Below are positions 12,201 to 14,538 of a DNA stretch of 17,461 bases, piece by piece. Source of the stretch: Streptomyces sp. NRRL WC-3549 (GTDB lineage Bacteria; Actinomycetota; Actinomycetes; Streptomycetales; Streptomycetaceae); the NCBI RefSeq assembly GCF_000721935.1, contig NZ_KL585398.1, positions 45,676-63,136 on the forward strand, read 5' to 3'. The position numbers were made by a program, and so were the translations under genes. How positions within the stretch are numbered: the stretch's first letter is position 1; the number at the start of each line of letters is the position of its first letter. The notes beneath the pieces are model-generated. The model worked only from the letters and a program-made list of their open reading frames with translations, was not told the DNA's origin and ran no database searches.

Positions 12201-14538
12201 GTACCCGCACCTGGCGGAGTACCCCGCCTTCACCGTCGACCGCCGCGACCGGGACAGGGTCCGTGAGTCCCTGCGCGGCCAGCTGATCGCCACCCAGCGC
12301 GCCGCCAACGGCGCCCTGCTCGCCGCCACCGGCGTCCAGACCGCCGGCGTCCTGGACGACCTGTACGGGAAGGCCGCGAGCAAGACCGAGCTCGGACCGG
12401 TCTTCCGCAAGGGCACCCCCACCCTCTCCGTCTGGGCGCCCACCGCCCGTACCGTCTCCCTCGAACTCGACGGCCGTACCGTCCCGATGCGCCGCGACGA
12501 CCGCACCGGCGTCTGGTCCGTCACCGGCAAGAAGGACTGGGCGGGCAAGCCGTACCGGTACACCGTGGACGTCTGGGCGCCCACCGTGCAGAAGACGGTC
12601 ACCAACAAGGTCACCGACCCCTACTCCACCGCCCTGACCACCGACTCCGCCCGCAGCCTCGTCGTCGACCTCGACGACCCGAAGCTGGCGCCGCGCGGCT
12701 GGCAGGGCCTGAAGAAGCCCGCGGCGGTCCCGCTGCGCGACGCGCAGATCCAGGAACTGCACATCCGCGACTTCTCGATCACGGACCCCACCTCGAAGCA
12801 CCCCGGCGAGTACCTGGCGTTCACCGACACCCGCTCCGACGGGATGAAGCACCTCAAGGAGCTGGCGGACTCCGGCACCAGCTACGTCCACCTGCTGCCC
12901 GCCTTCGACATCGGGACGATCCCCGAGAAGAAGTCGCAGCAGACCACGCCCGCCTGCGACCTGTCCGTCTACGCCCCCGACTCCGAGGAACAGCAGGCCT
13001 GCGTCGCGAAGGCCGCCGCAGAGGACGGGTTCAACTGGGGGTACGACCCGCTGCACTACACCGTGCCCGAAGGCTCCTACGCCTCCGACCCGAACGGCAC
13101 CCAGCGCACCGTCGAGTTCCGGCAGATGGTCCAGGGCCTCAACGGCGCCGGGCTGCGCACCGTCATGGACGTCGTCTACAACCACACCGTCGCCTCCGGC
13201 CAGGACGACAAGTCCGTCCTCGACCGCATCGTGCCCGGCTACTACCAGCGGCTCCTGGAGGACGGCACCGTCTCCACCTCCACCTGCTGCGCCGACACCG
13301 CGACCGAGAACACCATGATGGGCAAGCTCGTCGTGGACTCGGTCGTCACCTGGGCCAAGGAGTACAAGGTCGACGGCTTCCGCTTCGACCTGATGGGGCA
13401 CCACCCCAAGGCCAACGTCCTCGCCGTCCGCGAGGCGCTCGACGCCCTGACCGTCGCCGAGGACGGCGTCGACGGCAAGAAGATCGTCCTGTACGGCGAG
13501 GGCTGGAACTTCGGTGAGATCGCCGACGACGCCCACTTCGTCCAGGCCACCCAGAAGAACATGGCCGGTACCGGCATCGCCACCTTCTCCGACCGGGCCC
13601 GCGACGCCGTACGCGGCGGCGGCCCCTTCGACGAGGACCCCGGCGTACAGGGCTTCGCCTCCGGCCTCTACACCGACCCCAACACCTCGACCGCCAACGG
13701 CACCGAGGCCGAACAGAAGGCCCGGCTGCTCCACTACCAGGACCTGATCAAGGTCGGCCTCACCGGCAACCTCGCCGACTACACCTTCACCGACACCCAG
13801 GGCCGCACGGTCAGGGGCTCGGCCGTCGACTACAACGGCGCCCCCGCCGGATACGCGGCCGCCCCCGGCGACGCCCTGGCCTACGCCGACGCCCACGACA
13901 ACGAGACGCTCTACGACGCCCTCGCCTTCAAGCTGCCCGCCGGTACCACGGCCGCCGACCGGGCCCGCATGCAGGTCCTGGCGATGGCGACCGCCACCCT
14001 CTCCCAGGGCCCGTCGCTCTCCCAGGCGGGCACCGACCTGCTGCGCTCCAAGTCGCTGGACCGCAACTCCTACGACAGCGGCGACTGGTTCAACGCCCTG
14101 CACTGGGACTGCGAGATGTGTATAAGAGACAGGTCCTACGGCAAGCCGTTGCTGGCCTCGGCCGCGCTGCGCCCCGGGTGCACCGAGATCACCGGCGCGT
14201 CCGCCGCGTACCAGGACCTGCTGACCATCCGCACCACCGAGAAGGACTTCGGCCTCGCCACCACGGCGCAGGTGCAGAAGAGCCTGTCCTTCCCGCTGTC
14301 GGGCACGGAGGAGACGCCCGGGGTGATCACCATGCGTCTGGGCAAGCTGGTCGTCGTGCTGAACGCCGCCCCCGGGGCGCGCACCCAGCGCGTCCAGGAA
14401 CTGGCCGGTACGCGGTACGCGCTGCACCCGGTCCAGGCGTCCGGCGCGGACCGGACCGTCAGGAAGGCGGCGTACGACCGCTCCACGGGCACCTTCACCG
14501 TCCCGGGACGCACGGTCGCCGTGTTCACCCGGGGCTGA
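9265..14538 (+). CDS. pulA: Secreted bifunctional amylopullulanase (two GH13 modules, two CBM41)
   Basis: Very large exported enzyme, 1757 residues as read, expected to cut alpha-1,4 and alpha-1,6 bonds of starch and pullulan. GTG 9265 follows AGGAGA at 9251-9256; the signal peptide ends near ASASAA-P. First GH13 module: FDVITNH (175-181), GFRIDTVKH (296-304, D300), E334 in FGEVY, FLGNHD (400-405). Then an Ig-like region (about 609-697) and two CBM41 domains opening with HYHRADGDY (about 715-800 and 812-900). Next are a pullulanase N domain and a CBM48-like domain (about 1050-1150). The pullulanase GH13 module has FNWGYDP (1256-1262), MDVVYNH (1301-1307), GFRFDLMGHH (D1375), E1412 in LYGEGWNFGE and AHDNE (D1545). 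Residues 1617-1623 (EMCIRDR) are translated adaptor and appear to replace about 20 native residues after HWDC. The true protein is probably slightly longer. Confidence 0.93.
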   Translation: MSRTTLRRGAVAALCAALLPVVPAASASAAPRPPSPPSDAKLAREPARHDLTREQFYFVLPDRFANGDPSNDRGGLKGTRLETGFDPTDKGFYQGGDLKGLTQRLDYVKGLGTTAIWLAPIFKNRPVQGTGKDASAGYHGYWITDFTQVDPHFGTNADLTKLIDKAHGKGMKVFFDVITNHTADTVDYAEKEYGYKPKGAYPYLDTDGRPFDDSEGMGKVDAASFPYTPVTTGKKVPAWLNDPTMYHNRGDSTYAGESTEYGDFSGLDDLWTERPEVVTGMEKIYEKWVRDFNIDGFRIDTVKHVDLDFWTQWATALDAYAAKRGRDDFFMFGEVYSADTAITAPYVTRGRLDATLDFPFQEAARQYASQGAPASKLAAVHADDYRYTTDKANAYEQVTFLGNHDMGRIGTFLREDNPKAGDAELLARARLANELMFLGRGNPVVYYGDEQGYTGAGGDKDARQPLFASKTADYLDDDQIGTDRTHASDAYDTNHPLYRSIAALSKLTRDHPALRDGTQTERYAKDSVYAYARTDAERPYEYVVATNNSAAPKTVELATESAGMTFRTLYGGSGTVRSGADKKIRVTVPGLSSLVLRADKQLGTPAAKPSVRLTAPAAGATGTVEITADVSGGGSNRVVFAAQTGNGKWRTLGTADHAPYKVTQYLDESVRAGTALRYKAVVVDRAGRTASALASTTAGQAPPAPKPVAVERDRAVVHYHRADGDYDGWQLTSGGKTADFIGRDAYGAFAWIDLGESTSTVPYTVEKNGTADGPERTIDLARTGQVWVEQGKDGQATEAPEGANPPQDTSKAVLHYHRADGDYTGWGLHTWTGAAAPTDWAKPLTPVKTDAYGAVFEVPLTDGATSLSYILHKGDEKDLPSDQSLDLATYGHEVWMLGGRPGYLLPQTGGAPAPDLTKAEAQWIDADTVVWKVKATAATSQQLVYAKNGGISVVDGALSDEGQWLRLGTTELTAAQKATYPHLAEYPAFTVDRRDRDRVRESLRGQLIATQRAANGALLAATGVQTAGVLDDLYGKAASKTELGPVFRKGTPTLSVWAPTARTVSLELDGRTVPMRRDDRTGVWSVTGKKDWAGKPYRYTVDVWAPTVQKTVTNKVTDPYSTALTTDSARSLVVDLDDPKLAPRGWQGLKKPAAVPLRDAQIQELHIRDFSITDPTSKHPGEYLAFTDTRSDGMKHLKELADSGTSYVHLLPAFDIGTIPEKKSQQTTPACDLSVYAPDSEEQQACVAKAAAEDGFNWGYDPLHYTVPEGSYASDPNGTQRTVEFRQMVQGLNGAGLRTVMDVVYNHTVASGQDDKSVLDRIVPGYYQRLLEDGTVSTSTCCADTATENTMMGKLVVDSVVTWAKEYKVDGFRFDLMGHHPKANVLAVREALDALTVAEDGVDGKKIVLYGEGWNFGEIADDAHFVQATQKNMAGTGIATFSDRARDAVRGGGPFDEDPGVQGFASGLYTDPNTSTANGTEAEQKARLLHYQDLIKVGLTGNLADYTFTDTQGRTVRGSAVDYNGAPAGYAAAPGDALAYADAHDNETLYDALAFKLPAGTTAADRARMQVLAMATATLSQGPSLSQAGTDLLRSKSLDRNSYDSGDWFNALHWDCEMCIRDRSYGKPLLASAALRPGCTEITGASAAYQDLLTIRTTEKDFGLATTAQVQKSLSFPLSGTEETPGVITMRLGKLVVVLNAAPGARTQRVQELAGTRYALHPVQASGADRTVRKAAYDRSTGTFTVPGRTVAVFTRG
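14114..14132 (+). other. Complete Nextera/Tn5 mosaic-end adaptor inside the amylopullulanase gene (artefact)
   Basis: All 19 bases AGATGTGTATAAGAGACAG are present. In frame they give the well-known contaminant peptide MCIRDR. Genomic sequence before 14114 and after 14132 belongs to the same gene, so the order is right but the bases between have been lost. Confidence 0.97.

What the first reader, a model, noticed from the sequence alone, without database searches (positions are those of the whole stretch)
14114..14132. Nextera mosaic end bridges a gap inside the amylopullulanase gene
A complete 19-bp synthetic Tn5 mosaic end sits in frame in a conserved part of the pullulanase module. Flanking protein (SLDRNSYDSGDWFNALHWDC before, YGKPLLASAAL after) is from one gene, but from memory of the family about 20 residues with an FGxGLPP-type motif should lie between. 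The natural Tn5 outer and inner ends differ from this hybrid, so real transposition is very unlikely. The in-frame EMCIRDR means any predicted protein would look intact and enter databases with a false segment and a missing active-site-side loop.
Basis: partly seen in the sequence, partly recalled or inferred. Interest (0 to 1): 0.75.

Follow-up and report, generated by a model that had tools for sequence, protein, structure and literature searches.

The report
Sequencing adapter wrongly built into gene
A 19-base piece of laboratory sequencing adapter stands in a starch-degrading enzyme gene where about 58 real bases are missing; it is an assembly error, not biology.

Summary
The exact 19-bp Tn5/Nextera mosaic end (ME) is at 14114-14132, in frame in a pullulanase-type gene (none in 200 shuffles). 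In Streptomyces sp. SirexAA-E the flanks are 94.8% and 89.9% identical and about 58 bp lie between them. So 19 bp stand for 58 bp; the net loss is 39 bp, 13 codons, which keeps the frame open. The missing loop is present in 15 of 15 genus loci that cover the site, 80 of 80 named loci kept, and 120 of 120 listed proteins, one with a variant motif.

It is genome-wide: 282 exact ME copies, 538 with up to 2 mismatches. In 902 kb read, 65 of 390 contig ends facing N gaps carry ME, and there are 17 internal events. 79 exact copies continue into TCAG, none into the GCGTC tail of current Nextera; the upstream bases are 454-type adapter tails. A second bridge lies at 8865-8880, and the window ends in ME plus TCAG at an N gap. 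Not a real feature; low interest.

The parts
14114..14132 (+). complete 19-bp Tn5 mosaic end, standing in for about 58 bp of coding sequence
9265..14538 (+). 1757-aa ORF: alpha-amylase domain plus pullulanase-type alpha-1,6-glucosidase part, with the false segment E-MCIRDR-S
8865..8880 (+). last 16 bp of the mosaic end, inside ORF 7381-9174 (alpha-amylase-like), net +9 bp against SirexAA-E
17439..17457 (-). complete 19-bp mosaic end at the contig's right end
17458..17461 (-). TCAG, last four bases of the adapter tail upstream of ME; then 224 N

Best explanation
An assembly artefact. The strain's DNA was tagmented in vitro with Tn5 transposomes whose mosaic end (ME) is preceded by 454-type A or B tails (first-generation Nextera; the kit is recalled, not from a call). 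Adapter read-through was not fully trimmed, so many contigs end in ME (shown). Where two contigs lay close together, the assembler, scaffolder or gap closer joined them through leftover adapter and dropped the real bases between (the junction and the missing bases are shown; which program and step did it is inferred). At 14114-14132 the change is 19 bp for 58 bp, a multiple of three, so the gene still looks intact.
For: Exact ME, none in 200 shuffles. 538 ME copies with up to 2 mismatches and 0 of the reversed control in the own genome, 282 exact. In 902 kb, ME at 65 of 390 gap-facing contig ends and 17 internal events. Upstream bases at 29 of those 65 ends fit the 454-type tails, two near-complete or complete A tails and one complete B tail with an extra T among them; 79 exact copies continue into TCAG, where about one would by chance, 0 into GCGTC. 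About 58 bp missing against three close loci, and the loop in 15 of 15, 80 of 80 and 120 of 120 relatives, one with a variant motif. Other bridges also lost sequence: 17 bp for 98 bp. The relatives' stretches, 120 kb each from G015 and G005, have no ME piece of 10 bp or more.
Against: 325 of 390 gap-facing ends carry no ME, so most gaps have another cause. Not every bridge lost sequence: C3:67646 gained 27 bp and window 8865-8880 gained 9 bp net. How the left flank came to be joined to the outer edge of ME is not explained. A search of the own genome for the missing stretch found nothing, but the tool calls that answer uninformative. No raw reads were seen.
Confidence: 0.97

Rival explanations
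1. The false join was made in the tube, as a chimeric library molecule (ligation or PCR), and the assembler only reported it.
For: The left flank meets the outer edge of ME directly, which a plain read-through does not give.
Against: ME stands at 65 of 390 contig ends beside N gaps with adapter bases cut at varied lengths, as untrimmed read-through would leave it. A single chimeric molecule would have to outnumber normal molecules at each of 17 internal events in 902 kb.
Confidence: 0.02
2. A real insertion in the living strain: a Tn5-type or engineered mini-transposon scar together with a deletion.
For: One of 14 internal events tested (of 17; three were left out) has a 9-bp duplicated flank, as a Tn5 event gives.
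Against: Hundreds of copies, library tails upstream, ME at contig ends, no duplication at 14114-14132, no cargo. The transposase search was uninformative, since its controls did not ring either. The 9-bp duplication also fits in vitro tagmentation.
Confidence: 0.005
3. Natural, strain-specific coding sequence that happens to equal the 19-mer.
For: The frame is open across the junction.
Against: None in 200 shuffles; the loop is present in every relative compared; the same 19-mer occurs 282 times in this genome.
Confidence: 0.002

Closest known systems
Nextera/Tn5 mosaic-end adapter carry-over in short-read data and assemblies
   Same: Same 19-mer. SKESA's authors report it as the most frequent suspect k-mer in 5 of 5 trimmed read sets of their run-time set and 199 of 219 trimmed sets of 5000 (PMC6172800, passages seen). 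25 of 392 genus genomes, own included, hold an exact copy.
   Different: The next highest genome has 36 exact copies against 282 here. Of 10 loci fetched from other genomes, 8 lie within about 60 bp of a contig end (locus lengths), whereas here ME is also built into contigs, with 454-type tails instead of current ones.
Pullulanase-type alpha-1,6-glucosidase (TIGR02103); limit dextrinase by solved structure
   Same: 966.8 bits over residues 915-1756, cut-off 697.6; barley-type limit dextrinase entries such as 2y4s align with residues 1-710 of the 712-aa piece searched.
   Different: The stretch that holds GVGLPP in limit dextrinase is aligned with the false segment here; the genuine loop is missing.

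Membership tests
Nextera/Tn5 library adapter | exact 19-bp mosaic end | tested here: met
Nextera/Tn5 library adapter | library tail directly upstream of ME | tested here: met
   met in the genome: 79 of 282 exact copies continue into TCAG and longer tails stand at contig ends. At 14114 itself at most one upstream base (G) could be tail.
Nextera/Tn5 library adapter | tail of the current Illumina Nextera kit | tested here: not met
   GCGTC before ME: 0 genome-wide; the second current tail was tested at contig ends in 902 kb only and fits no more than a single G
Natural Tn5 insertion | outer or inner ends in place of the hybrid ME | tested here: not met
Natural Tn5 insertion | 9-bp target duplication at this site | tested here: not met
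   1 of 14 internal events has one, this site does not
Natural Tn5 insertion | transposase gene in the genome | tested here: inconclusive
   0 matches, but 0 of 14 control genomes rang
TIGR02103 pullulanase-type alpha-1,6-glucosidase | score above the curated cut-off | tested here: met
   966.8 against 697.6 bits
TIGR02103 pullulanase-type alpha-1,6-glucosidase | enzyme activity of the protein | not testable with these tools
   no assay

The most novel reading that the evidence does not exclude
This draft genome carries adapter bridges inside contigs at 17 per 902 kb (extrapolated, about 140 in all). Some lie in genes, and where the net change is a multiple of three they give silently false proteins that still pass family cut-offs, so screens that look only at contig ends miss them.
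Probability: 0.85. Interest if true: 0.2.

Novelty: not a real feature. Interest (0 to 1): 0.12.

Why it matters
Only as a warning. The predicted protein passes its family cut-off although a loop present in every compared relative is replaced by adapter translation, and the same genome has hundreds of such remnants. Users of this assembly should screen for the 19-mer inside contigs, not only at their ends.

Tried and rejected
Real transposition: rejected for the copy number, the library tails and the lack of a duplication at this site. Current Illumina Nextera as the source: not supported. The transposase family search was uninformative. A search of the own genome for the missing stretch, with an 86-base piece of the SirexAA-E locus, found nothing, which the tool says shows nothing. 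At C1:31450 the loss could not be measured in SirexAA-E. Papers: the A tail joined to ME is in 5 papers (listing; passages seen in PMC8997610 and PMC8778162); the B tail joined to ME in 0; both tails with '454' in 81 (6 listed, listing only). That these tails belong to the first Nextera kits is recalled. Searches on adapter carry-over in assemblies (listings only, shown in part) and for a Streptomyces draft with Nextera and Epicentre gave no title on internal bridges and did not identify the strain; I do not claim that no such paper exists. My tally of upstream bases was spoiled by a slicing error and redone.

Full report
What is there. The 19-mer AGATGTGTATAAGAGACAG is exact at 14114-14132; 200 shuffles give none. 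It is in frame in ORF 9265-14538 (1757 aa), which has an N-terminal alpha-amylase domain and a C-terminal pullulanase-type part. The translation at the site is HWDC-E-MCIRDR-S-YGKPLL.

What is missing. One search covered 31 genomes, the own one included; of the other 30, 15 have a match that covers the site and all 15 carry a loop with FGRGLP there. Of 80 named loci (the best 80 of 394), 76 show it by strict anchor and the other 4 show it with DSGDWYN. Of the best 120 of 5866 homologous proteins, 119 have it and one has GIGRGLPP; none of the 120 holds an ME translation. The three sets overlap and were not made distinct. Against SirexAA-E, S. halstedii and S. silvae (L107-L109) the flanks align without gaps and 58 bp are missing; against the 15 more distant loci the estimate is 52-58 bp. 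58-19=39, so the frame is kept. The C-terminal Pfam domain matches from profile position 22 of 165 and the family score is above its cut-off, so annotation would not flag the gene.

How far it goes. The own genome (7.31 Mb, 124 scaffolds, 85.5% complete) has 538 ME copies with up to 2 mismatches, 266 forward and 272 reverse, and none of the reversed control; 282 are exact. Of 392 genus genomes, own included, 25 have an exact ME and the next highest has 36 copies; of 10 loci fetched from other genomes there, 8 lie within about 60 bp of a contig end and 2 do not (locus lengths). I read 902 kb of the own genome: 195 N gaps, ME at 65 of 390 gap-facing ends, none at the other 325, and 17 internal events, one of which abuts a gap. 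Stretches of 120 kb each from G015 and G005 have no ME piece of 10 bp or more. The window is exactly one contig, C18:45676-63136, between a 200-N and a 224-N gap, and ends in ME plus TCAG.

Which adapter. Of the 65 ends, 27 start inside ME, 6 at its edge, 29 have upstream bases that fit the A and/or B tail (two of these, a single G, also fit a current tail), 1 is a complete B tail with an extra T, and 2 are altered. Genome-wide 79 exact copies continue into TCAG, where about one would by chance; none continues into GCGTC. The A tail joined to ME is in print as a primer part (passages). The link to first-generation Nextera is recalled.

Other bridges. C14:18474: 17 bp for 98 bp. C14:127017: about 57 bp net lost, alignment uncertain. 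C18:26286-26316: 31 bp where both relatives have 41. C18:11078-11118: 41 bp where G005 has about 96, flank matches weak. C3:67646: no loss, +27 bp with a 9-bp duplicated flank. Window 8865-8880: net +9 bp. C1:31450: not measurable. Loss is common but not universal.

Mechanism. Shown: adapter remnants at contig ends, adapter at internal junctions, real sequence missing at this one. Inferred: the join was made by assembly, scaffolding or gap closing through the remnant. Not explained: how the left flank came to be attached to the outer edge of ME.

Verdict. Observation and reading are both right. It is an artefact of a known kind (SKESA passages), unusually abundant in this genome.

Noticed in passing
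8865-8880: A second ME bridge, 16 bp of ME, in frame in the alpha-amylase-like ORF 7381-9174 (read GVYKRQ), net +9 bp against SirexAA-E.
   Followed up: yes
17439-17461: The window's right end is ME plus TCAG before a 224-N gap; on the minus strand ME offers a false GTG start (MYKRQ...) for ORF 15801-17453.
   Followed up: partly
1-29: The window's first bases (at least 6-29) repeat the end of the preceding contig across a 200-N gap, so that gap looks false: the two contigs overlap.
   Followed up: partly
G000:C3:67646 (L082:7646): An internal ME event with a 9-bp duplicated flank and no loss, as two fragments of one Tn5 cut would give.
   Followed up: yes
genus genomes: Exact ME also in 24 other genomes, most in G138 (36), G206 (29), G332 (25) and G089 (17).
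   Followed up: no
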